The notes beneath the pieces are model-generated. The model saw only the letters and a program-made list of their open reading frames with translations, was not told the DNA's origin and did no database searches. A stretch of DNA of 64,000 nucleotides from Solirubrobacter deserti (GTDB taxonomy: Bacteria; Actinomycetota; Thermoleophilia; Solirubrobacterales; Solirubrobacteraceae): NCBI RefSeq assembly GCF_003344625.1, contig NZ_QPKJ02000005.1, positions 806,001 to 870,000 on the forward strand. Reading direction: 5' to 3'. The first letter of the stretch is position 1, and each line of letters begins with the position of its first letter. Both the position numbers and the translations under genes were made by a program. Positions 10,061 to 60,613 of this stretch are shown one piece after another.

Positions 10061-10765
10061 GTGCCCGTCGCCTCGTTCCACCTCGTTCGCTACCCCGGAA
10101 TCCGCGACGGTCTCCCCTACATGGCCTGGGACCGGCCCGTGCTGGGCCGTGTCGAAGGCTTGCGCTTCTTCCGCCTGCTCGGCACCGGCCGCGGCAGCAC
10201 GATGACGCTGTCGGCGGACTTCCGCCGCTGGGCGCTGTTCGCGGTGTGGGACGACGACGCCGCGCTCGACGCCTTCCTCGCCGGGTCGGAGATCGCCGCC
10301 CGCTGGCGCGCGGCGGAGCACTACACGGTGCGGCTCGCCCCGGTCCGCGCGCACGGCGCGTGGAGCGGAGAGAACCCGCTGGCGGGCGGGGCGAGCGACG
10401 GCGGGCTGGGGGCGACGAGCGGCGACGGCGCGGCCCAACCTGTCGCGATCCTCACGCGCGCTGCGATCCGGCCGCGGCGGCTCGTCGCCTTTCATCGTGC
10501 CGTGCCCGGCCCTGCACGCACGCTGCACGACGCGCCCGGCCTGCTCGCTTCGGTCGCGATCGGCGAGCTGCCCGTGCTGCGCCAGGCGACGTTCTCGCTC
10601 TGGCGCGATCTCGATGCGGCGAAGGGGTACGCGTACCGCAACGCGGCCCACGCGGCGGTGGTCAAGCGGACCCGCGCGGAGGGCTGGTACTCGGAGGAGC
10701 TGTTCGCGCGTTTCGTGCCCTATGGCGCGGAGGGTACGTGGGACGGGCGTGACCCGCTGAGCTGA
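10061..10765 (+). CDS. Spheroidene monooxygenase (CrtA)-like protein
   Basis: 234 residues. The sequence matches the CrtA pattern: an N-terminal beta-alpha segment ([20 protein letters not shown]), [16 protein letters not shown] near residue 35, [18 protein letters not shown] near 55, a middle [18 protein letters not shown] near 165, and a C-terminal [28 protein letters not shown], the most conserved CrtA block. CrtA enzymes introduce keto groups at C-2 of acyclic carotenoids and are haem-linked monooxygenases. The carotenoid operon on the opposite strand converges with it and overlaps its last 46 bp. GTG start; an internal ATG at 10121 would cut into the conserved N-terminal strand. Confidence 0.75.
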
Positions 10766-12069
10766 CGGGCGACGCTGCGCCCGCCGAGCGTGACGAGCGG
10801 CAGGCCGCCGCCCGGGTGCACGGTGCCGCCGGTGAGCCACAGGCCGTCGATGCCGCGGATGCGGTTGCCCGGCCGCAACATCGCGCCGAGCCGGCCGTGC
10901 GGGGCGGCGCCGTAGATCGGGCCGCCGAGGTCCTGCGGCGTCACGCGCTCGACGACGCTCGGCTGCACGCCCAGCCGCTCGACCGCGGCGGCCTGGGTGG
11001 CGTCCCAGTCGGCGGGGGAGGCGGGCGCGTTGACGAGCACGAACCAGCCCTGCTCGGGCGGCGCGCACACGTACAGGGTCGGGTCCTGCGGCATGCGGCG
11101 GTGCGTGAAGATGTCGTCGAACTCGGCGTCGTAGTCGCGCGGGAACAGGATGCGGTGGTGCGCGGGCGCCGGATCGCACACGCCGAGCAGCAGCGCGAGC
11201 CCCGACAGCGACGGCGTGCGCCGCCGCGCGGGCCGGCCGAGCAGGCGCGTGCGCACGACGCGCTCGTCGACGTCCGTGACGACCGCGTCCGCGGCGAACG
11301 CGCCGTCGCCGGTCTCCACGCCGCGCACACGGCCGTTCGCGACGGTGATCCGCTCGACGGGTGTGTTCAGGCGCAGCTCGCCGCCCAGCGCCTCCAACCG
11401 CCGCGTCATCGCCAACGGGATCGCGTACATCCCGCCGCGCGGGTGCCAGGCGCCGAAGGCGTGCTCGACGTACCCGGCCGTCGCGAGCGCCGCGGGCGCG
11501 CGCCGCGGATCGGCGCCCGCGTAGGTCGCGAAGCGCTCGATCACCATCCGCAGCCGCGGGTCGCGCGCGGTGGCGCGGGCGAGGTCGCGCAGCGTCCACC
11601 ACGGCTTCACGCGCAGCGCGTCGCGTGGGTCGGGCGGCGGCTCGCCCGGCGCGGGCCGGCGCGGCGGGAACGGCGGCGGCCCGGTCAGGAAGCGCTCCGA
11701 CGCCCGCCACATGGACGCGCACACGCTGAGGAAGCGCATCCAGTCCGCGCCCGCGCCCGGCGACCACGCCTCCAGCGCCGCGAGCGCGCGCGGCAGGTCG
11801 GCCGACAGCTCGAGCACCGACCCGTCCGCGAACTCGTACCGCGTGACCGGCTCGACCCGCTCGAGCTCGAGCCCGAGGTCCTCGAACACCCACGGCATCG
11901 TCAGCAGCGAAGGTCCGGCGTCCCACACGAAGCCGTCCCGCTCGACCCGCCCGCACTTGCCGCCCGGCGCGTCCGCGCGCTCGAACACGGTCACCGCGTG
12001 CCCCGCACCCGCGAGCTCGATCGCGGCGGCGAGCCCGCCGACGCCTGCTCCCACGACCGCGACCTTCAT
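10720..12069 (-). CDS. Phytoene-desaturase-family oxidoreductase (CrtD-like)
   Basis: 449 residues from the ATG at 12069, which overlaps the stop of the CruF-like gene (ATGA). The FAD-binding dinucleotide fold opens the protein ([19 protein letters not shown], residues 3-21), followed by APGGKCGRV and [11 protein letters not shown], shared by CrtI, CrtD and CrtN. The C-terminal FAD block is [20 protein letters not shown] near residue 405. It is the second desaturase paralogue of this operon and clearly distinct from CrtI upstream. Next to a CruF-type hydratase it best fits the 3,4-desaturase (CrtD) that acts on 1-hydroxylated carotenoid ends; a CrtN/CrtP-type oxidase cannot be excluded. Last gene of the leftward operon. 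Confidence 0.75.
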
Positions 12070-12791
12070 CGGCGCAGCGCCGGCGCCGCGAACGCGCCCA
12101 TCGCGAGCCCGCCGGCGAGTGCGACCACCGGCCGGCGCCAGATGAACGCGTTGGCGATCGCCTCGCCCGCCCAGGTCCACGCGTACAGGGCCACGGCGCC
12201 CGCGTCGTCGCCGGACGAGCCGCCCTCGCGTTCGAGCGCCGCGAAGGCCGCGAACACGCCGAGGCCGGTCACGAACCAGCCCGCGAAGTTCGACGCCGGT
12301 ACGCCCTCGTAGCGGCCGCCGCCGGGCCAGGACCAGTAGCCCTCGCGGACCATGCGCGGGTCCAGGTAGACGTCCCACGCCGTCAGCGCACCGGCGGCGA
12401 GCGGCACCCGCGCGGCCGGATGCCGGGAAAAGCGCCCCGCGACGGCCCACGCCGGCCGCGCCATCATCGCCCACGCCGCGGCGGCCAGCACGGGCACCCC
12501 GCGCACGCGCGGCCCGAGCTGCTCCGAGTACGAGTAGTGCCCGAACGGCTTGCCCGTCGCGACCCCCACGAGCTCGGCGCCGAAGCCGATCGCGCCCGCG
12601 GCCAGCACGGGCCCCGGCCGGCGCGCCTCGGCGAGCGACGTCGCGAGCATCAGCCCCACGATTCCCCGCGTCGCCGCCGGCGTACGGCGGGAGCGCCCGT
12701 ACGCGATCTGGGCGGCCGCGAGCGAGCCGAACAGCGCTGGGAAGAGCCGCGGCCGTGCCAGCCTGTCGCGCGCCGTGGCGAGCGCCTTCAC
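12066..12791 (-). CDS. Carotenoid 1,2-hydratase family membrane protein (CruF/DUF422-like)
   Basis: 241 residues, GTG start at 12791 sharing GTGA with the crtB stop. The protein is almost entirely hydrophobic with about six to seven membrane segments. Recognisable family features are ATGKPFGHYSYSEQLGPRVRGVPVL near residue 75, LTAWDVYLDPRMVREGYWSW near 130 (Asp-rich DxxxDPRM motif) and YEGVPASNFAGW near 160. Characterised members (CruF, Deinococcus C-1',2'-hydratase, haloarchaeal bisanhydrobacterioruberin hydratase) add water across the terminal double bond. In this operon it would make tertiary-hydroxy ends for the CrtD-like enzyme. Membrane location is seen; exact substrate is inferred. Confidence 0.8.
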   Translation of the reverse strand: MKALATARDRLARPRLFPALFGSLAAAQIAYGRSRRTPAATRGIVGLMLATSLAEARRPGPVLAAGAIGFGAELVGVATGKPFGHYSYSEQLGPRVRGVPVLAAAAWAMMARPAWAVAGRFSRHPAARVPLAAGALTAWDVYLDPRMVREGYWSWPGGGRYEGVPASNFAGWFVTGLGVFAAFAALEREGGSSGDDAGAVALYAWTWAGEAIANAFIWRRPVVALAGGLAMGAFAAPALRR

Positions 12792-13585
12792 GCGCGCCAC
12801 GCCGCGCGCGCGGCGATCTTCAACTTGCGCGACCGCGGCACGATCGCGCGACCCGGGCGGACCCCGTAGCCCTCGACCTCCAGCTGGCGCAGCAGCTCGC
12901 GGTACATGTTGGCGGCGGCGAGGATCGCGCGGCGCCCGCGCCGGAGCTCGCCGATCCCCGCGATCCCGCGGTCGTACAGCGCGTCGGCGCGCGGGATCTG
13001 GTCGCGCAGCAGCGCCTCGCGGCGACCCGGCTCGAGCGAGCCGAAGCGGTCCAGCGTCGAGCGGGCGAAGTAGATGCGGCCGTTGGCGACGTCCTCGTCG
13101 ATGTCGCGCAGGATGTTCGTGCGCTGCATCGCCATGCCGAGGGCGGCCGCGGCCGGGCGGGCTCGCTCGAAGTCGTCTGTGCCCAACACGGCGGCCATCA
13201 CGACCCCGACGGTACCGGCGACGCGGTAGCAGTAGCGGTCCACGTCCTCCTCGGTCTCGTAGACGGCGCCGGTCAGGTCCTCGCGCATCCCGGCGCAGAA
13301 GTCGGCCAGCGCGTCGCGCGGCAACGCGTGCCGGCGCTCGAGGTCCGTGAGGATCGTCGTCTCCGGCGTGACCACGGGCTCGCCGGCGGCCCACAGCTCC
13401 ACCGCGCTCACGCGGTCGGCGGCCTCGGGGCGGCCGTCGTCGACGAGGTCGTCCAGCGTGCGGAACACCAGGTACAGCAGGTAGACGTCGTCGCGCACGT
13501 CGCGCGGCAGCAGCCGGCACGCCAGCGCGAACGTGCGCGCGACCTGCTTGGTGGTCGCCCGGGCCTCGTCGAGCACGGCGCTCAA
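12788..13585 (-). CDS. crtB: Phytoene synthase
   Basis: 265 residues if the TTG at 13585 is used (TTGA overlap with the crtI stop); a GTG at 13576 would give 262. Squalene/phytoene synthase hallmarks: KQVARTFALACRLLP near residue 10, first Asp-rich motif RTLDDLVDD near 38 (DxxxD), and the second in MQRTNILRDIDEDVANGRIYF near 155 (DxxxD). YRELLRQLEVEGYGV near the C-terminus is also typical. It condenses two geranylgeranyl diphosphates to phytoene, the first committed carotenoid step. Operon order PAP2-crtI-crtB-cruF-crtD with overlapping starts implies a single transcript. No GGPP synthase is seen in the window. Confidence 0.93.
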   Translation of the reverse strand: MSAVLDEARATTKQVARTFALACRLLPRDVRDDVYLLYLVFRTLDDLVDDGRPEAADRVSAVELWAAGEPVVTPETTILTDLERRHALPRDALADFCAGMREDLTGAVYETEEDVDRYCYRVAGTVGVVMAAVLGTDDFERARPAAAALGMAMQRTNILRDIDEDVANGRIYFARSTLDRFGSLEPGRREALLRDQIPRADALYDRGIAGIGELRRGRRAILAAANMYRELLRQLEVEGYGVRPGRAIVPRSRKLKIAARAAWRA

Positions 13586-15057
13586 GCCCGGACCCCCGCG
13601 TCCGCCGCGACCAGCTCGCCGGTGACGGCCGCTCCCATCAGCACGCCGGGGATCCCCGCCCCCGGGTGCGTTCCCCCTCCGACGTGGTAGAGCCCGCGCA
13701 CGCCCGGCACGCGGTTCGGCGCGCGGAAGTAGGCGGACTGGTGCAGCGTCGGCTCGACCGCGAACGCGTTGCCGTCCACGGCGCCGAAGCGCGACGCGAA
13801 GTCCAGCGGCGTCATCCGGTGCTCCACCCGCACCGAAGCGTCCAGCCCGGAAAGCCCGAACGTCGTCTCCATGTCCCGCACGAGCCCGTCCCGCAACCGG
13901 TCCGCAGCGCTGGCCCAGTCCACGCCCGCCCGCAGGTTCGGGACCGGCAGCAGCACCGCCAGCGAGTCGCCGCCGGGCGCCGCCATCGCCGGCTCGGTCC
14001 GGGCCGGGGCGTGCACGTAGGTCGAGTAGGTGGACGGGAGCCCGCGCCCGCGCGTGACGTCCCGGATGAATTCCCGGTATTCGTGCCCCACGAGCAGCGT
14101 GTGGTGCAGCAGCGCGTCGAACTGCCGGTCGCACCCGAGGTAGAGCAGGAAGGCGGACATCGTCGGCGTCAGCCGCCGCCGCGGCGAGCGCCGCCCGAGC
14201 AGCTCGTGGGTGCGCAGCACGTCGGCGTTGGTCACGACCACGTCGGCCGGCACCCGTTCGCCGCCCTCCAGCCACACCGCGCGCACGCCGCCGGCGCCGG
14301 TCTCGATCCGCTCCACACGAGCACCGCAGCGCACGTCCAGCGGCCGCGCCATCGCCTCCACGAGCGAGTACACGCCGCCGTCCGTGTACCAGCCGCCGTC
14401 CAGCAACTGCAGGTACACGAGCGCGCCGTAGATCGCGGGCACGCGGTACGGGTCGCCGCCGATGAACAGCGAGTGGAAGGAGAACGCCTCACGCACGCGT
14501 GGATTGCGGAAGTGGCGGGAGACGAACGCGTGCAGCGGCAGCACGGCGCGCAGCCGCACCATCGCCGGCACGAGCGCGGCGAACGACAGCGGCGACGGGA
14601 ACGCCTTCTGCCCCGCGGCCAGCAGCCCTTCCTCGTAGATCGGCTTCAGCGCGGCCAGGAAGCCGTCCAGCGCCTTCGCGTCCCGCTCGTCGAAGCGCGC
14701 GATCTCCGCGCGCAGCGCGTCCACGTCCGAAAAGAAGTCCAGGTGGCGCTCCTCGCCCGCCCAGCGGATGCGGTAGAGCGGGTCCAGCCGCCGCATCCTC
14801 ACCTCGGACCACAGGTCGAGCCCGCCCGCCGCGAACGCCTCCTCGAGCACCCACGGCATCGTGATCAATGACGGCCCGGTGTCCCACGTGAAGCCGTCAG
14901 CGCGCAGACGCGCGGCCCGGCCGCCCGGTGCGGAGCCCTGCTCCAGCACCGTTACGTCGAAACCCTGGCCCTGGAGCCTCAGCGCCACGGCCAGGCCACC
15001 CAGGCCCGCCCCGATCACCACCGCGCGCGTTCCCCGCGAGAGCGAAGTCACCGTCAT
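13582..15057 (-). CDS. crtI: Phytoene desaturase
   Basis: 491 residues, normal CrtI length. FAD-binding fold at residues 12-40 (AVVIGAGLGGLAVALRL, then GSAPGGRAARL), DTGPSLITMPWV near 60, RHFRNPRVREAFSFHSLFIGG near 185, and the C-terminal FAD block GLYHVGGGTHPGAGIPGVLM near 455. It converts phytoene to lycopene or a related polyene by successive desaturations using FAD. ATG start at 15057; the upstream PAP2 frame continues 161 bp into this gene in another frame, but the FAD fold begins only 12 residues after the ATG, so a later start is unlikely. Confidence 0.93.
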   Translation of the reverse strand: MTVTSLSRGTRAVVIGAGLGGLAVALRLQGQGFDVTVLEQGSAPGGRAARLRADGFTWDTGPSLITMPWVLEEAFAAGGLDLWSEVRMRRLDPLYRIRWAGEERHLDFFSDVDALRAEIARFDERDAKALDGFLAALKPIYEEGLLAAGQKAFPSPLSFAALVPAMVRLRAVLPLHAFVSRHFRNPRVREAFSFHSLFIGGDPYRVPAIYGALVYLQLLDGGWYTDGGVYSLVEAMARPLDVRCGARVERIETGAGGVRAVWLEGGERVPADVVVTNADVLRTHELLGRRSPRRRLTPTMSAFLLYLGCDRQFDALLHHTLLVGHEYREFIRDVTRGRGLPSTYSTYVHAPARTEPAMAAPGGDSLAVLLPVPNLRAGVDWASAADRLRDGLVRDMETTFGLSGLDASVRVEHRMTPLDFASRFGAVDGNAFAVEPTLHQSAYFRAPNRVPGVRGLYHVGGGTHPGAGIPGVLMGAAVTGELVAADAGVRA

Positions 15058-44225: not shown

Positions 44226-44229
<4 letters not shown>

Positions 44230-45119
44230 AGCCCGTCTTCTTCCTGCGCGAGGCGCTGCGGGCGCTCAAGCGCAACGCGATCCCGAGCTTCGCCGCCATG
44301 GCCACCGTGCTCGTCACGGTGCTCGTGCTCGGCGTGTTCATCCCGGTCGTGCAGGCCACGACCGGCGCGGCCAACGAGGTCCGCGGCAAGGTGATCGCCG
44401 ACGTCTACCTCAAGACGGACGCCAAGCGGGCCGACATCGAGCGTGTCGACCGCCTGCTCAAGTCCGAGCCGATGATCTCGAAGGTCGAGTTCATCTCCAA
44501 GGACCAGGCCTACAAGGCCGAGCGCGAGCGCAACCCGAAGGCCTACGAGCTGCTCGGCTCCAACCCGCTGCCGGACACGTTCCGCATCACGCCGGGCAAT
44601 CCGGACGACATCGGCAAGATCCGCGACGCGCTCGCGCCCTCGGCTCCCGGCGGCGGCCGCACGGTCGTCGATCCCGCGATCGACGAGGTGCGCAACCGCG
44701 AGGAGGACACCAACAAGATCCTCGCGGTGACCAACGTCGTGAAGATCACCATGGCGCTGCTCGCGGGCCTGCTCGGCATCGCGTCGATGCTGCTGATCGC
44801 GAACACGATCCGCCTGTCGCTCTACGCCCGCCGGCGCGAGGTCGAGGTCATGAAGCTCGTGGGCGCGACGGACTGGTTCATCCGCTGGCCGTTCGTGCTC
44901 GAGGGCGTGATCGTCGGCCTGTTCGGCGGCGTGGTCGCGATCCTGCTCCTGGCGGTGGTCAAGATCGCCGTGGTCGACCCGCTCGCCGCGGACTTCGCGC
45001 TGATCGCGGCGCCCGAGACGATCGACTTCCCGCTGCTGATCGGCCTGCTGCTCGTCGCGGCCGTGTCGGTCTCCGCGCTGGGCTCCGGCCTCAGCCTGCG
45101 GAAGTTCCTACGCGTCTAG
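44226..45119 (+). CDS. ftsX: Cell division protein FtsX
   Basis: 297 residues, start overlapping the ftsE stop. Topology: an N-terminal membrane segment (residues ~20-42), a large extracellular loop (~45-172, DVYLKTDAKRADIERVDRLLKSEPMISKVEFISKDQA...), then three more membrane segments (~175-197, ~223-250, ~270-290) in the MacB-like FtsX fold, with MKLVGATDWFIRWPFVLEG (residues ~208-226) coupling to FtsE. The extracellular loop is where FtsX contacts hydrolase partners. Its end overlaps the LOV gene by 29 bp on the other strand. Confidence 0.93.
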
Positions 45120-46734
45120 CGACCAGCACCGCCACGTCGTCGCGGCGCGCCCCCGCGTGCGCCGCGGCGCGGTCCACCCGCCCGGCGATCGAGGACGCGT
45201 CCTCGCGCGTGGCCGCGCGCAGCAGCGCCTCGAGCCCCGCGAGCCCGTACTGGTCGCCGGTCGTGCGGGCCTCGGTCACGCCGTCGGTGAACAGCACGAG
45301 CGACTCCTGCTCGCCGAGCTCGAACGTGACGTCGAGGAGCTTCGGGTCCGGCACCCAGCCGAGCACGGAGCCGGGCTTGCCGACCGGCTCCACGTCGCCG
45401 TCGCGCCGCATCACGAGCGGCATCGGGTGTCCGGCGCAACAGATCGTCGCTCTGAGATCGACCGGTGGGGCTGCCGCCCCCCCGGAGCCCCCGCGCTTCC
45501 GGCCGTTGACCTCGAGCCGGCAGAACGCAACCGTGCAGTAGCGCCCGCCGCCCTCACCGCGCTCCGACAGCAGCGTGCGGTTGATGACGTCGAGGATCCT
45601 GCTCGGGCTCTCCTCGTACTGGGCCGCGGTGCGCACCGTGTGGCGGACCTGCGCGGTGAGCGCGGCGGCGCGCGCGCCCTTGCCGGTGACGTCGCCGATC
45701 ACCAGATCGATGCCGTTCTCGCGGGGCAGGACGTCGTAGAAGTCGCCGCCGATGAGGCTGCCGTCGCCCGCGGGCCGGTAGCGCGCGGCAATGTCCATGC
45801 CGTCGAACGTCGGCAGGCGCTCCGGGAGCAGGCCCTGCTGCAGCGACCGCGCGACCGTGCCGAGGTTCTCGTACAGGCGCGCGTTGTCGATCGCGAGCGC
45901 GGCGCGCAGCGCGAGGTCCTCGGCCAGCACGAGATCCTGCTGGCCGTACTGGCGACCGGGCTGGCAGGCCGCGAAGGTGACGGCGCCGAAGATCGTCCCG
46001 CGCGCCTTCAGCGGCACGATCATCGCCTTGGCCGGCCGTCCGAGCAGCGTGTCGGTGTCGACGATCTCGGCCCGGCCGCTCTGCACGGCGCGCACGAGGG
46101 ACTCGTTGTCCTGCACCGCGGACGGGTTGGGACGCCGGCGCAGCATGTGCTCCATCTCCGCGTCGGCGGCCGCGGACGAGAGCCGGCGCACCTCGTCGTG
46201 GCGGATCTCCTCCACGAGGCAGACGTCGCCCAGGAACGGCACGGACAGGCGCGCCAGCGAGGCGAGCGTCGAGTCCAGGTCCAGCGACGCGTTCAGCAGC
46301 GGACCGGCGTTGGCGAGGAAGCTCGAGCGGCGCTCGGCGATCTCGGCCAGCGCGCGCGGCTCCCGGTAGGCGGTGACGTCGACCTGCACGCCGACGAAGC
46401 GCGCGACCGTGCCGTCCGCGTCGCGCACCGGCGCGATGTGGACCTCGTTCCAGAACGGGGTGCCGTCCTTGCGGTAGTTGCGCAGGTGGACGGTGGTGGA
46501 GCGCTCCTCCGCGATCGCGCGGCGCAGCTCGTCGATCGCCTCCGGGTCCGTGTCGGCCCCCTGCAGGAAGCGGCAGTTGCGCCCGAGCACCTCGTCCTCG
46601 GCGTAGCCCGTCATGTCGAGGAACGACTGGTTGACGTAGACGATCGGGTGGTCCGGCCGGTGCGGGTCCGTGAGCAGGAACCCGGTTCCGGACTGGTCGA
46701 GCGCCTCGTCGAAGAGGGCCAGATCGCCGGCCAC
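45091..46734 (-). CDS. LOV-GAF-PP2C/SpoIIE phosphatase (blue-light sensor)
   Basis: 547 residues. Residues ~5-125 are a photochemically intact LOV domain: GRNCRFLQG with adduct Cys54, NYRKDGTPFWN (Asn86, Asn96) and FVGVQVDVT with Gln117, the flavin-contacting set. A linker and GAF domain (~140-285, SLDLDSTLASLARLSVPFLGD...LAIDNARLYENLG) follow, then an SpoIIE/PP2C phosphatase (~310-545) with FDGMDIAARYRPAGDGSLIGGDFYDV, LVIGDVTGKGARAAALTAQVRH and FTDGVTEAR. Blue light should control dephosphorylation of a STAS anti-anti-sigma factor. The adjacent STAS gene lies 3 bp downstream of its start region. A Gly/Ala-rich insert interrupts the phosphatase near residue 410. Confidence 0.9.
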   Translation of the reverse strand: MAGDLALFDEALDQSGTGFLLTDPHRPDHPIVYVNQSFLDMTGYAEDEVLGRNCRFLQGADTDPEAIDELRRAIAEERSTTVHLRNYRKDGTPFWNEVHIAPVRDADGTVARFVGVQVDVTAYREPRALAEIAERRSSFLANAGPLLNASLDLDSTLASLARLSVPFLGDVCLVEEIRHDEVRRLSSAAADAEMEHMLRRRPNPSAVQDNESLVRAVQSGRAEIVDTDTLLGRPAKAMIVPLKARGTIFGAVTFAACQPGRQYGQQDLVLAEDLALRAALAIDNARLYENLGTVARSLQQGLLPERLPTFDGMDIAARYRPAGDGSLIGGDFYDVLPRENGIDLVIGDVTGKGARAAALTAQVRHTVRTAAQYEESPSRILDVINRTLLSERGEGGGRYCTVAFCRLEVNGRKRGGSGGAAAPPVDLRATICCAGHPMPLVMRRDGDVEPVGKPGSVLGWVPDPKLLDVTFELGEQESLVLFTDGVTEARTTGDQYGLAGLEALLRAATREDASSIAGRVDRAAAHAGARRDDVAVLVARRVGTSAG

Positions 46735-46737
46735 CGG

Positions 46738-47052
46738 CTATTCCTCGAGGTTGAGCCGGTCCGTCACTTCCGCGAGCTCCAGGACACGGCGCGGCTCGCC
46801 GTCACCCGGGATCACGATGAACGTCCGGCCCTCCTCGCGGGCACGGACGTCGGCGTCCAGGACGAGCTGCAGGCCGGTGGAGTCGAAGAACGACACCTCC
46901 CGCAGGTCGAGCACCAGCACCTGGGGCTTGTCCTCCTCGGCGCGGCGGAGCTCCTCCTCCGCGCGAGGCCCCGTCTCCATGTCCAGCTCACCCCGGATCA
47001 CGATCCGGAGCTTGCCGTTGGACTGCTGTCTTTCAACTTTAAATGAGAGCAC
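46738..47052 (-). CDS. STAS domain anti-sigma factor antagonist
   Basis: 104 residues from the GTG at 47052, which has AAGGAA five to ten nt upstream; an ATG at 47094 would add 14 codons but overlaps the divergent gene. STAS fold: LRIVIRGELDMETGPRAEEEL and the phosphorylatable site VLVLDLREVSFFDSTGLQLVLDADV (Ser in DSTGL). Members bind an HATPase anti-sigma factor when dephosphorylated. The LOV-PP2C phosphatase starts 3 bp further downstream on the same strand (46734), so STAS and phosphatase are probably co-transcribed. Confidence 0.88.
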   Translation of the reverse strand: MLSFKVERQQSNGKLRIVIRGELDMETGPRAEEELRRAEEDKPQVLVLDLREVSFFDSTGLQLVLDADVRAREEGRTFIVIPGDGEPRRVLELAEVTDRLNLEE

Positions 47053-47063
47053 GACGTTCCTTG

Positions 47064-47081
47064 CGGGTACGGCTGTACCCG
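47064..47081. promoter_or_regulatory. Inverted repeat between the divergent STAS and HATPase genes
   Basis: CGGGTAC (47064-47070), spacer GGCT, GTACCCG (47075-47081): perfect 7-bp arms in the 40 bp between the STAS GTG and the HATPase ATG. Candidate operator or divergent-promoter element for the module. Confidence 0.5.
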
Positions 47082-47092
47082 TCAACCGGCCC

Positions 47093-47467
47093 ATGGTCTA
47101 CTCGCAAAGCTTCCCAAAAACTCGAGCGGCAGCCGCCCACGCCCGCGAGATGCTGGCGCAGATGGACGGTGCGCTGCCTGAATCGACGCTCGACGACGCC
47201 CGTCTGCTCACCTCCGAGCTGGTCGCCAACGCCGTCGAGCACGTGCCCGATGACGGCGCGGTCGAGGTCCGGATGGACGTCTCGGATGAGCGTCTACGCG
47301 TCGAGGTGTACGACAATGGCGCCGGGTTCGAGTGGGTGCCCCGGCGCGCCGGCGCGGGCAACGAGCGCGGGTGGGGGTTGCACTTCACCGACGCGGTCGC
47401 CTCCCGCTGGGCGGTGGAGCGCGGGGAGCGCACCTGCGTCTGGTTCGAGCTCGAAGTGCGGGCTTAG
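47093..47467 (+). CDS. HATPase_c anti-sigma factor/serine kinase (RsbW-like)
   Basis: 124 residues. GHKL fold: LTSELVANAVEHVP (N-box with the Mg-binding Asn, residues ~42-55), VYDNGAGF (G1 region, ~78-85) and NERGWGLHFTDAVASRWAVE (G2, ~94-113). Such kinases hold a sigma factor and phosphorylate STAS partners. No sigma factor gene is seen in the window. The ATG at 47093 overlaps in CCATGG with an alternative ATG for the STAS gene; no Shine-Dalgarno is evident. Confidence 0.82.
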   Translation: MVYSQSFPKTRAAAAHAREMLAQMDGALPESTLDDARLLTSELVANAVEHVPDDGAVEVRMDVSDERLRVEVYDNGAGFEWVPRRAGAGNERGWGLHFTDAVASRWAVERGERTCVWFELEVRA

Positions 47468-47506
47468 CGTCATCTGACAAACGGGCACTAACGTGAGGCG
47501 TCGTCC

Positions 47507-48679
47507 ATGCGAACGCTCCGCACCGCTCTTCTCATCCTCCTCGTCCCGCTCGCGTTGATCGTCGGCATCCTGCTCGGCGGACACCCCGAGTTCCTGCCCG
47601 GCTTCGCGCGTGACACGCTCGTCGCCGACAGCGACGGGCGCCTGTACGAGGAGGCGGTGGACAAGATCGAGGCCGACTACTACCGCGAGGTCGACCGCGG
47701 CAAGCTGCTCAACACGTCGCTCGAGAAGGCCGTGGAGTCGCTCGACGACCAGTTCTCGCACTACTTCTCGCCGACCGAATACCACGCGTTCCAGCTCGAC
47801 ACCGAGGGCGCCTTCGAGGGCGTCGGGATGAGCGTGACGGCCGTGGCCGAGGGCCTGCGCGTGGCCGAGGTCTACGACGGCTCGCCGGCCAAGGAGGGCG
47901 GGCTCAAGCCCGGCGACGTCATCACCAGCGCCAACGGCAAATCGCTGAAGGGCAAGACCTCCGAGGAGTCCACGACGCTGATCAAGGGGCCGGCCGGAAC
48001 CGAGGTGACGCTGGGGCTCAAGGACGGGCGCAAGCTCAAGCTCGAACGTGCCAAGGTGGACATCCCGATCGTCCAGAGCCGGACCGAGACCCATGACGGC
48101 AAGAAGATCGCGCACGTGTCGCTCGCCGGCTTCACGTCGGGCTCGGGCGACGACGTCGACCGCGCGGTCAAGGAGCAGCTCAAGCGGGGCGCCGAGGGCG
48201 TCGTGTTCGACCTGCGCCACAACGGCGGCGGGCTGCTCAACGAGGCCGTGGAGGTCGCGTCCGTGTTCCTCAAGGACGGGCGGGTCGTGTCCACCAAGGG
48301 CCGCTCGCGGCCGGAGCGCAAGTACAACGCGACGGGCGGCGCGATCGCGTCCGACGTCCCGGTGGTCGTGCTCGTCGACCAGGGCTCGGCGTCGGCGTCG
48401 GAGATCGTCACGGGCGCGCTGCAGGACCGCAAGCGCGCCAAGGTCGTCGGCACGCGCACGTACGGCAAGGGCGTCTTCCAGGAGATCATGCGGCTCGAGA
48501 ACGGCGGCGCGCTGGACATCACCGTCGGCGAGTACTTCACGCCGTCCGGCCGCAACCTCGGCGGCGGTGGGGTGCAGAAGGGCGCGGGTATAACCCCGGA
48601 CATCCAGGCGTCCGACAATCCCGAGACCGAGCCCGACGAGGCGCTCGACAAGGCACTGGAGACGGTGACCAAGGATTGA
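47507..48679 (+). CDS. S41 family C-terminal processing peptidase (CtpA/Prc-like)
   Basis: 390 residues. An N-terminal membrane segment (ALLILLVPLALIVGILLGG) anchors it outside. PDZ domain at about residues 95-175 (FEGVGMSVTAVAEGLRVAEVYDGSPAKEGGLKPGDVI), then the S41 core: FDLRHNGGGLLNEAVEVASVF, QGSASASEIVTGALQDRKRA with the catalytic Ser, and GTRTYGKGVFQE with the general-base Lys. It cleaves C-terminal tails of substrate proteins in the cell envelope. Co-directional with the HATPase gene; overlaps the next gene (TTGA). Confidence 0.92.
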   Translation: MRTLRTALLILLVPLALIVGILLGGHPEFLPGFARDTLVADSDGRLYEEAVDKIEADYYREVDRGKLLNTSLEKAVESLDDQFSHYFSPTEYHAFQLDTEGAFEGVGMSVTAVAEGLRVAEVYDGSPAKEGGLKPGDVITSANGKSLKGKTSEESTTLIKGPAGTEVTLGLKDGRKLKLERAKVDIPIVQSRTETHDGKKIAHVSLAGFTSGSGDDVDRAVKEQLKRGAEGVVFDLRHNGGGLLNEAVEVASVFLKDGRVVSTKGRSRPERKYNATGGAIASDVPVVVLVDQGSASASEIVTGALQDRKRAKVVGTRTYGKGVFQEIMRLENGGALDITVGEYFTPSGRNLGGGGVQKGAGITPDIQASDNPETEPDEALDKALETVTKD

Positions 48680-60222: not shown

Positions 60223-60608
60223 GGGGACGACAGGCTTCGACGTGGTCGGTTCGTGGGGTCGGTTGCGAGTCGGGGTACCGGAGGCCCCGTAAAAAACCGG
60301 TACAACACAAATGCGGACAAGAATCCCGCTCTCGTGGCCGATGAGGCTCACGAGTACGCTCTCGCCGTCTAGCCGAAACTAGAAGGTGAGCCTCAGCTCC
60401 CGGAGCCTACGACGGGGATCAGCTGAGTCATAAGTAGGCTCGCCCTCCAGACGCCTGCCTGAGCCGACGGAGGGGACTTCCGATCGGGCTGGCCCCTCTC
60501 AACCTTTGTCGGTGGAGCAAGCGAGGGGCGAGATCCAGACCACCGAATACGCTCGTAGACGCCGGCTTGGCGCGACTGCGGACGCGGGTTCAATTCCCGC
60601 CGTCTCCA
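60223..60608 (+). ncRNA. ssrA: Transfer-messenger RNA
   Basis: About 386 nt. The 5' end GGGGACGACAGGCTTCGACG pairs with the 3' CGTCTCC (60601-60607) to form the alanine-type acceptor stem, with one G-U pair, and the T arm GCGGGTTCAATTCCCGC precedes it (60584-60600). The tag-coding region sits in the 5' third (60313-60372), followed by A/G-rich pseudoknot sequence. The last nucleotide before CCA addition is about 60608. tmRNA with SmpB rescues stalled ribosomes and marks nascent chains for ClpXP. The D-like and tag regions are confidently placed; pseudoknot boundaries are approximate. Confidence 0.95.
60313..60372 (+). other. tmRNA tag-peptide reading frame
   Basis: Resume codon GCG at 60313; the tag after the charged alanine reads ADKNPALVADEAHEYALAV, then TAG (60370-60372). 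Nineteen encoded residues plus alanine, longer than the E. coli tag (11). It ends LAV instead of LAA; the LAx end is the ClpX recognition site. Upstream sequence (GTAAAAAACC...) carries the A-rich determinant that sets the resume codon. Confidence 0.9.
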
Positions 60609-60613
60609 CTCGT

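What the first reader, a model, noticed from the sequence alone, without database searches (positions are those of the whole stretch)
45091..47467. Blue-light LOV-GAF-PP2C phosphatase with STAS and RsbW-like kinase
The phosphatase has the full LOV flavin-adduct set (GRNCRFLQG Cys54, Asn86/Asn96, Gln117) joined to GAF and SpoIIE-type PP2C domains. STAS lies 3 bp away on the same strand, the HATPase diverges. That assembles a light-input partner switch, like stressosome or RsbU/V/W systems, but with the sensor fused to the phosphatase. No sigma factor is in the window, so the output is open; the carotenoid cluster 30 kb away is an attractive target.
Basis: partly seen in the sequence, partly recalled or inferred. 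Interest (0 to 1): 0.75.

Follow-up and report, generated by a model that had tools for sequence, protein, structure and literature searches.

The report
Blue-light phosphatase switch in Solirubrobacter
A soil actinobacterium carries a blue-light sensor fused to a protein phosphatase, with two partner proteins that probably relay light to gene control; the design is an ordinary one built from known parts, but relatives have repeatedly deleted the light sensor while keeping the rest.

Summary
A LOV-GAF-SpoIIE(PP2C) phosphatase (45091-46734, -) follows a STAS gene on the same strand; an RsbW-like HATPase gene diverges. The four LOV photochemistry residues, PP2C acidic motifs, STAS phospho-serine and HATPase motifs are intact. 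The three genes are a unit: linked in 10 of 10 genomes with a close orthologue, at more than one chromosomal site and in two gene orders. Most likely mechanism: blue light acts through helical linkers to change phosphatase activity on phospho-STAS; the HATPase re-phosphorylates STAS and holds an unlinked target, probably one of six SigB/F/G-type sigma factors. The biochemistry is inferred, not shown. Nothing found ties it to the carotenoid cluster. LOV-SpoIIE phosphatases are a known class.

The parts
45091..46734 (-). LOV-GAF-SpoIIE/PP2C phosphatase, 547 aa, GTG start; converges on ftsX with a 29-bp 3' overlap (45091-45119)
   Evidence: orthologues; model
46369..46659 (-). LOV domain (PAS_9 residues 26-122); Cys54 codon 46573-46575; Asn86, Asn96, Gln117
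46291..46374 (-). LOV-to-GAF linker, one continuous helix in the model (about residues 121-148)
45889..46281 (-). GAF domain (residues 152-282)
45829..45942 (-). 38-residue helix joining GAF to PP2C (about residues 265-302)
   Evidence: 14 residues between positions 283 and 298 in 120 of 120 listed homologues, the window's own included
45112..45717 (-). SpoIIE/PP2C catalytic domain by Pfam (residues 340-541); invariant GDVTGKG-, TDG- and RDD-type acidic motifs, and GGDFYD (Asp331) just before it
46738..47052 (-). STAS anti-anti-sigma-like protein, revised start GTG 47052-47050; phospho-acceptor Ser in FDSTGL
47093..47467 (+). RsbW-like HATPase (HATPase_c_2), 124 aa; E42/N46, D74-x-G-x-G and GWGL motifs; 39 bp before the S41 protease gene
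47065..47080 (.). Palindrome GGGTAC-N4-GTACCC between the divergent genes; candidate operator or promoter element

Best explanation
A light-gated partner switch. Blue light forms the flavin-Cys54 adduct in the LOV domain; the change passes through a continuous LOV-GAF helix and the long GAF-PP2C helix of a presumed dimer and changes PP2C activity. The phosphatase removes phosphate from the serine of the adjacent STAS protein; the divergent HATPase puts it back with ATP. Unphosphorylated STAS binds the HATPase and frees its target, most likely one of the SigB/F/G-type sigma factors encoded elsewhere. Whether light raises or lowers phosphatase activity cannot be read from sequence. Shown here: domain make-up, intact active residues, linkage, helices in a model. 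Inferred: photocycle, dimerisation, substrate, kinase activity, sigma target, direction of the response.
For: Domains. LOV quartet complete; of 120 listed homologues (the window's own included), all 105 with most of the LOV domain have the Cys and 102 of 105 the full quartet (exceptions P0021, P0030, P0042). PP2C acidic residues invariant in 52 of 52 aligned proteins, chosen from the 120. STAS motif DSTGL or DSSGL in 10 of 10 orthologous loci. HATPase E42, N46 and G76 in 121 of 121 aligned sequences and D74 in 117. STAS directly upstream of the phosphatase and the HATPase close by in 10 of 10 genomes with an orthologue at E below 1e-100 (own, G001, G003, G004, G005, G013, G031, G152, G155, G156), divergent in 8 and downstream on the same strand in 2. 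The unit sits between ftsX and ctpA in Solirubrobacter but elsewhere in G013 and G031, whose ftsX and ctpA are adjacent, so it moved as a block. Helical linkers in a model of mean pLDDT 90.5 fit the coiled-coil linker mechanism reported for RsbU and proposed for other PPM phosphatases (PMC12143880, abstract and passages). The third-best HATPase match in this genome, the window's own counted first, is part of a SpoIIE-HATPase ORF next to a SigBFG factor.
Against: No SigBFG-like gene in 20 kb around the module in G013 and G152, 12.9 kb in G031, 8.2 kb in G156 or 5.5 kb in G155. Other sigma types do occur nearby in some: an ECF-like ORF about 3.8 kb from the phosphatase in S. soli (L057), a weak sigma match at a similar distance in S. 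phytolaccae (L056), and an ECF-like ORF about 9 kb away in G031 (L069:611-1153, by eye); none is in the window. The congener G002 keeps the HATPase at this site with phosphatase and STAS gone, so the HATPase must have a further role or partner. The HATPase is far below the RsbW and SpoIIAB equivalog cut-offs (26.9 of 145 and 26.4 of 135 bits). The genome has 25 SpoIIE, 33 STAS and 62 HATPase_c_2 matches, so cross-talk is likely and the nearest neighbour need not be the partner.
Confidence: 0.72

Rival explanations
1. GAF-PP2C-STAS-HATPase is the core device and answers mainly to another signal through GAF; the LOV is an accessory modulator.
For: LOV presence needs five changes in a 62-protein clade whose outgroup rows all carry LOV (5, bootstrap 5-6, no tree with 1; 4 without the doubtful row P0092, 3 without P0052/P0053 as well). 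LOV-less forms keep STAS and HATPase beside them in 2 of 2 loci seen (S. soli, G031).
Against: Where LOV remains its Cys is never lost (105 of 105), so it is probably kept for light sensing. No GAF ligand is known.
Confidence: 0.38
2. The output is not a sigma factor: STAS and HATPase control another protein, for example an enzyme or a cell-envelope process, since the HATPase is 39 bp upstream of ctpA and the unit lies beside ftsEX.
For: No SigBFG-like gene in 5 of 5 stretches outside the genus, of 5.5-20 kb; HATPase retained alone before ctpA in G002.
Against: In G013, G031, G152, G155 and G156 no ftsX or ctpA match lies in the stretch that holds the unit, so these are not conserved partners. 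The HATPase class is joined to SpoIIE beside a SigBFG factor elsewhere in this genome.
Confidence: 0.25
3. The HATPase works like RsbT, binding and activating the phosphatase, rather than like RsbW.
For: RsbT, the partner that activates RsbU (PMC12143880), is to my knowledge of the same HATPase class (recalled); the weak RsbW scores leave this open.
Against: The phosphatase has LOV and GAF where RsbU has its RsbT-binding domain; the HATPase persists without the phosphatase in G002.
Confidence: 0.1
4. The LOV senses redox or flavin state rather than light.
For: General possibility for LOV domains (recalled, not tested here).
Against: Complete adduct quartet in 102 of 105.
Confidence: 0.08

Closest known systems
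B. subtilis RsbP/RsbQ-RsbV-RsbW-SigB energy-stress branch
   Same: PAS-type sensor, helical linker and PP2C in one phosphatase that activates a sigma factor by partner switching (start of the abstract of PMC3183031 in a listing; PMC12143880 passages; the RsbV/RsbW details recalled)
   Different: LOV in place of a PAS not known as a light sensor, plus a GAF; HATPase well below the RsbW cut-off; no linked SigB-type factor
LOV-SpoIIE phosphatases as a class of bacterial photoreceptors
   Different: Here with GAF between, and with STAS and HATPase genes as a conserved unit; I saw no characterised member in the listings and passages of ten searches
YtvA / RsbL (Lmo0799) LOV-STAS input to the SigB stress response
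   Same: LOV input to a partner-switch network (PMC4844311 passages)
   Different: LOV sits on a stressosome protein there (its STAS partner domain recalled); fused to the phosphatase here
GAF/PAS-PPM regulators OsaC (S. coelicolor) and Rv1364c
   Same: Sensor domains on a PPM phosphatase that initiates a general stress response, actinobacterial (PMC12143880 passage)
   Different: In Rv1364c anti-sigma and anti-anti-sigma domains are fused on; here they are separate genes and the sensor is LOV

Membership tests
LOV photoreceptor domain | GxNCRFLQ with adduct Cys, two Asn and Gln around the flavin | tested here: met
   C54, N86, N96, Q117; YtvA_fam 2.5e-48 by its LOV part
LOV photoreceptor domain | 450-nm adduct and dark recovery | not testable with these tools
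   needs purified protein
YtvA family (NCBIfam NF052652) | whole-protein score over cut-off | tested here: not met
   164.7 of 250 bits; LOV part only
SpoIIE/RsbU-type PP2C (PPM) phosphatase | Pfam SpoIIE over cut-off and metal-binding Asp motifs | tested here: met
   125.5 of 25 bits; motifs invariant in 52 of 52
SpoIIE/RsbU-type PP2C (PPM) phosphatase | helical linker into the PPM domain, dimer | tested here: inconclusive
   38-residue helix in a monomer model; dimer not tested
Anti-anti-sigma STAS (RsbV/SpoIIAA) | STAS fold with phospho-acceptor Ser in DS(S/T)GL | tested here: met
   Pfam STAS 49.2 of 22.6 bits; motif in 10 of 10 orthologues; phosphorylation not tested
Anti-anti-sigma STAS (RsbV/SpoIIAA) | over NCBIfam ant_ant_sig cut-off | tested here: not met
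   48.2 of 53.45 bits
RsbW / SpoIIAB anti-sigma kinase | HATPase_c_2 with N box and G1/G2 boxes | tested here: met
   51.2 of 27.4 bits; motifs conserved
RsbW / SpoIIAB anti-sigma kinase | equivalog model over cut-off | tested here: not met
   26.9 of 145 and 26.4 of 135 bits
RsbW / SpoIIAB anti-sigma kinase | binds a sigma factor | not testable with these tools
   no linked SigBFG-like gene
Stressosome | RsbR/RsbS/RsbT genes linked | tested here: inconclusive
   no RsbR-, RsbS- or RsbT-named model among the NCBIfam matches of the three proteins at E up to 0.01; the rest of the genome was not searched for them

The most novel reading that the evidence does not exclude
A partner switch whose light input is evolutionarily detachable: one phosphatase lineage sheds its receiver-like and LOV domains repeatedly while the GAF-PP2C core, STAS and HATPase stay, and in one species the HATPase alone survives behind the same kind of palindrome. 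That would make light-responsive and light-blind sister species a natural experiment on how a stress switch gains and loses photosensing, with the HATPase as an autoregulated hub.
Probability: 0.37. Interest if true: 0.6.

Novelty: new member of a known kind. Interest (0 to 1): 0.42.

Why it matters
It is the only LOV domain found in this S. deserti-type assembly (96.7% complete) at E up to 1e-15, so a single knock-out would test LOV-mediated photobiology in the genus. The sister species S. soli has the same three genes at the same place without LOV, which allows a direct comparison of switches with and without light input. The unit may also serve as a ready-made light-controlled serine phosphatase.

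Tried and rejected
Heptad rule for the LOV-GAF spacer. In the first 103 LOV-bearing homologues spacer lengths were 14 (1), 15 (1), 18 (24), 22 (11), 25 (8), 29 (3), 32 (43) and 163 (12, extra PAS), nearly all of the short ones 1 or 4 modulo 7. I predicted the same for a fresh search; of 25 new proteins 5 had 32, 11 had 33 (a Paraconexibacter-type group), 7 had 163 and 2 lacked LOV. The prediction failed for that group, so I do not claim quantised linkers. (My note says the new search would be seeded with P0082; it was seeded with P0097.)

Palindrome as a SigB-type -10 (GGGTAC): I saw no GNNT or GTTT at the usual spacing by eye on either strand, and the consensus is recalled; not claimed. Palindrome as a regulon motif: exactly one site per genome in 4 of 4 genomes, so no regulon, and one site per genome is about what chance gives (reversed control pattern 0, 1, 0, 1). 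What counts is that it is the same orthologous site with 12 of 12 arm bases identical against 10 of 25 flank bases. Sigma-70 promoter scan: 0 found, 0.1 expected. Carotenoid cluster as target: no evidence. Stressosome reading: set aside.

Structure: phosphatase model obtained. The HATPase model was still unfinished when I stopped and no fold search was accepted. The Glantz et al. 2016 survey of LOV topologies is not held, so how it treats LOV-GAF-SpoIIE is unchecked.

LOV counts: of 120 listed proteins 105 have LOV and 15 do not; 3 of the 15 (P0090, P0094, P0102) begin inside GAF and were dropped from the trees, and 3 (P0049, P0059, P0089) begin at the last LOV strand and may be mis-called starts (8 changes with them, 5 without). 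Without P0092, another possible mis-call, 4; without P0052 and P0053 (PAS remnants on short contigs) as well, 3.
Full report
What is there. The window lies in a 7.55-Mb assembly of 428 contigs; the phosphatase is identical over 547 aa to one in Solirubrobacter deserti CPCC 204708 (Thermoleophilia). Between ftsX (44226-45119, +) and an S41 protease gene, ctpA-like (47507-48679, +), lie a LOV-GAF-SpoIIE phosphatase and a STAS gene on the minus strand and an RsbW-like HATPase gene on the plus strand. The LOV assignment rests on the NCBIfam YtvA family (2.5e-48) and LOV-kinase models, which match by the LOV part only and below their cut-offs, on LOV proteins as best PDB matches and on the full set Cys54, Asn86, Asn96, Gln117. 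The STAS and HATPase ATGs of the longest ORFs overlap in one CCATGG. Three congeners have ATG at the codon matching GTG 47052-47050, and a GGAAC upstream is shared by all four, so the STAS start is most likely 47052.

Is it a unit? In the family sample, 12 of 146 genomes have a match to the phosphatase at E up to 1e-75. One is another assembly of the same species (G165, not examined further), and one (G024) is a weaker match to a different protein, with a STAS but no HATPase match in its 4.5-kb locus. In the other 10, STAS lies directly upstream and the HATPase close by in 10 of 10: divergent in 8 and downstream on the same strand in 2. In Solirubrobacter the unit sits at ftsX-ctpA (own, G001, G003, G004, G005), while in G013 and G031 ftsX and ctpA are adjacent and the unit lies elsewhere. 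It has therefore moved as a block. By eye, ten longest-contig lengths coincide between the 120 listed phosphatases and the 120 listed HATPases, which also suggests linkage, weakly.

How it probably works. The model (mean pLDDT 90.5, pTM 0.65) shows LOV, one helix 120-147, GAF, one helix 264-301 (model numbering, one less than the full protein), and PP2C. Helical linkers that dimerise and activate PPM phosphatases have been reported for RsbU and proposed for GAF-, PAS- and receiver-regulated relatives (PMC12143880, abstract and passages). The PP2C acidic motifs are invariant in 52 of 52 aligned proteins, the STAS serine motif is present in 10 of 10 orthologous loci, and HATPase E42 and N46 are invariant in 121 of 121 aligned sequences (the window's and 120 listed, one of them its own record), D74 in 117. 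Hence the partner-switch reading. The photocycle, the sign of the light effect, the substrate and the kinase step are inferred.

Output. The genome has 6 matches over the SigBFG cut-off among 24 SigBFG matches, 25 SpoIIE, 62 HATPase_c_2, many of them probably histidine kinases (my reading), and 33 STAS. None of 107 Sigma70_r2 matches lies in the window. No SigBFG-like gene lies in the five stretches outside the genus. Against a simple 'no linked sigma' rule: an ECF-like ORF lies about 3.8 kb from the phosphatase in S. soli, beyond ftsX, ftsE and the M16 protease gene, a weak sigma match lies at a similar place in S. phytolaccae, and an ECF-like ORF lies about 9 kb away in G031 (by eye). The two nearest HATPase paralogues in the own genome are parts of ORFs that also hold SpoIIE, and one of them, at C1:1421513, is adjacent to a SigBFG factor. 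A SigB-type target in trans is therefore the likeliest output, but unproven. The carotenoid cluster is real (SQS_PSY 12788-13603, Caroten_synth 12147-12980, Amino_oxidase 13582-15057 and 10720-12138, all -), but nothing found here connects it.

Evolution. Of 120 listed homologues the 105 with LOV all keep the Cys, as do the 23 with LOV among 25 further ones. Most Solirubrobacterales-type relatives carry a receiver-like domain before LOV; the window's clade has lost it; the 12 outgroup rows (one named Rubrobacter sp.) have no receiver and an extra PAS, so the root state is unsure. A careful tree of 62 GAF-PP2C sequences needs 5 changes of LOV presence (bootstrap range 5-6; none of 200 bootstrap trees with one), three ambiguous rows left out; dropping one more doubtful row gives 4, and the two PAS-remnant rows 3. 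LOV-less forms also occur outside that clade (P0257, P0261; G031). S. soli is the clean case: the phosphatase frame begins 1 bp after the STAS stop with a stretch that looks like a receiver start and runs straight into the linker, and STAS and HATPase are retained. G031 has receiver-like-GAF-PP2C with STAS and HATPase. In G002 only the HATPase remains between ftsX and ctpA, and the 12 STAS matches in that genome are at most 41% identical. At E up to 1e-15 the LOV here is the only one in the own assembly, as in G003 and G004; G002 has none; S. soli and G001 have a separate LOV protein, Cys intact, with GGDEF- and EAL-like sequence (my reading of the translations), and G031 has another Cys-bearing LOV.

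Promoter. GGGTACGGCTGTACCC (47065-47080) is in the divergent gap. It occurs once in each of four genomes searched, each time here. The arms are identical in 12 of 12 positions against 10 of 25 in the flanks, part of the conserved flank being the GGAAC before STAS. G002 has GGGTAC-N5-GTACCC before its lone HATPase; in S. soli only one arm is intact. It may be an operator for autoregulation; not tested.

Standing. [quoted passage not shown] In ten searches of the open library no listed title or abstract start described a LOV-GAF-PP2C with STAS and HATPase partners; listings were capped (20 of 25, 10 of 22) and subscription papers are mostly not held, so this is weak evidence of absence. I file it as a new member of a known kind. 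The repeated loss of the light domain, with its cysteine kept wherever it stays, is the part worth following.

Noticed in passing
L048 (G002), about 1054-1450: A congener keeps only the HATPase between ftsX and ctpA, with a GGGTAC-N5-GTACCC palindrome upstream; phosphatase and STAS are gone.
   Followed up: partly
P0082, P0060 and other homologues, N-terminus: The N-terminal receiver-like domain seems, by eye, to lack the phospho-acceptor Asp and the conserved Lys, so a pseudo-receiver may be a further input of this phosphatase family.
   Followed up: no
window 45454-45495 (residues 414-427 of the phosphatase): A 14-residue Gly/Ala-rich insert in the PP2C domain, filled in at most 3 of the other 119 listed homologues at any position; low confidence in the model.
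   Followed up: partly
L084 (S. soli) and L086 (G001): A second LOV protein with GGDEF- and EAL-like sequence; in S. soli it is the only LOV match left.
   Followed up: partly
L057:11039-12424 (S. soli): An ECF-sigma-like ORF with a long Ser/Gly/Pro-rich tail near the ftsEX locus; it has no Sigma70_r2 counterpart in the window.
   Followed up: partly
window 47468-47506: Only 39 bp separate the HATPase stop from the S41 protease start on the same strand, so the two may be co-transcribed in Solirubrobacter.
   Followed up: no
window 60223-60611: tmRNA gene (ARAGORN; Rfam).
   Followed up: no
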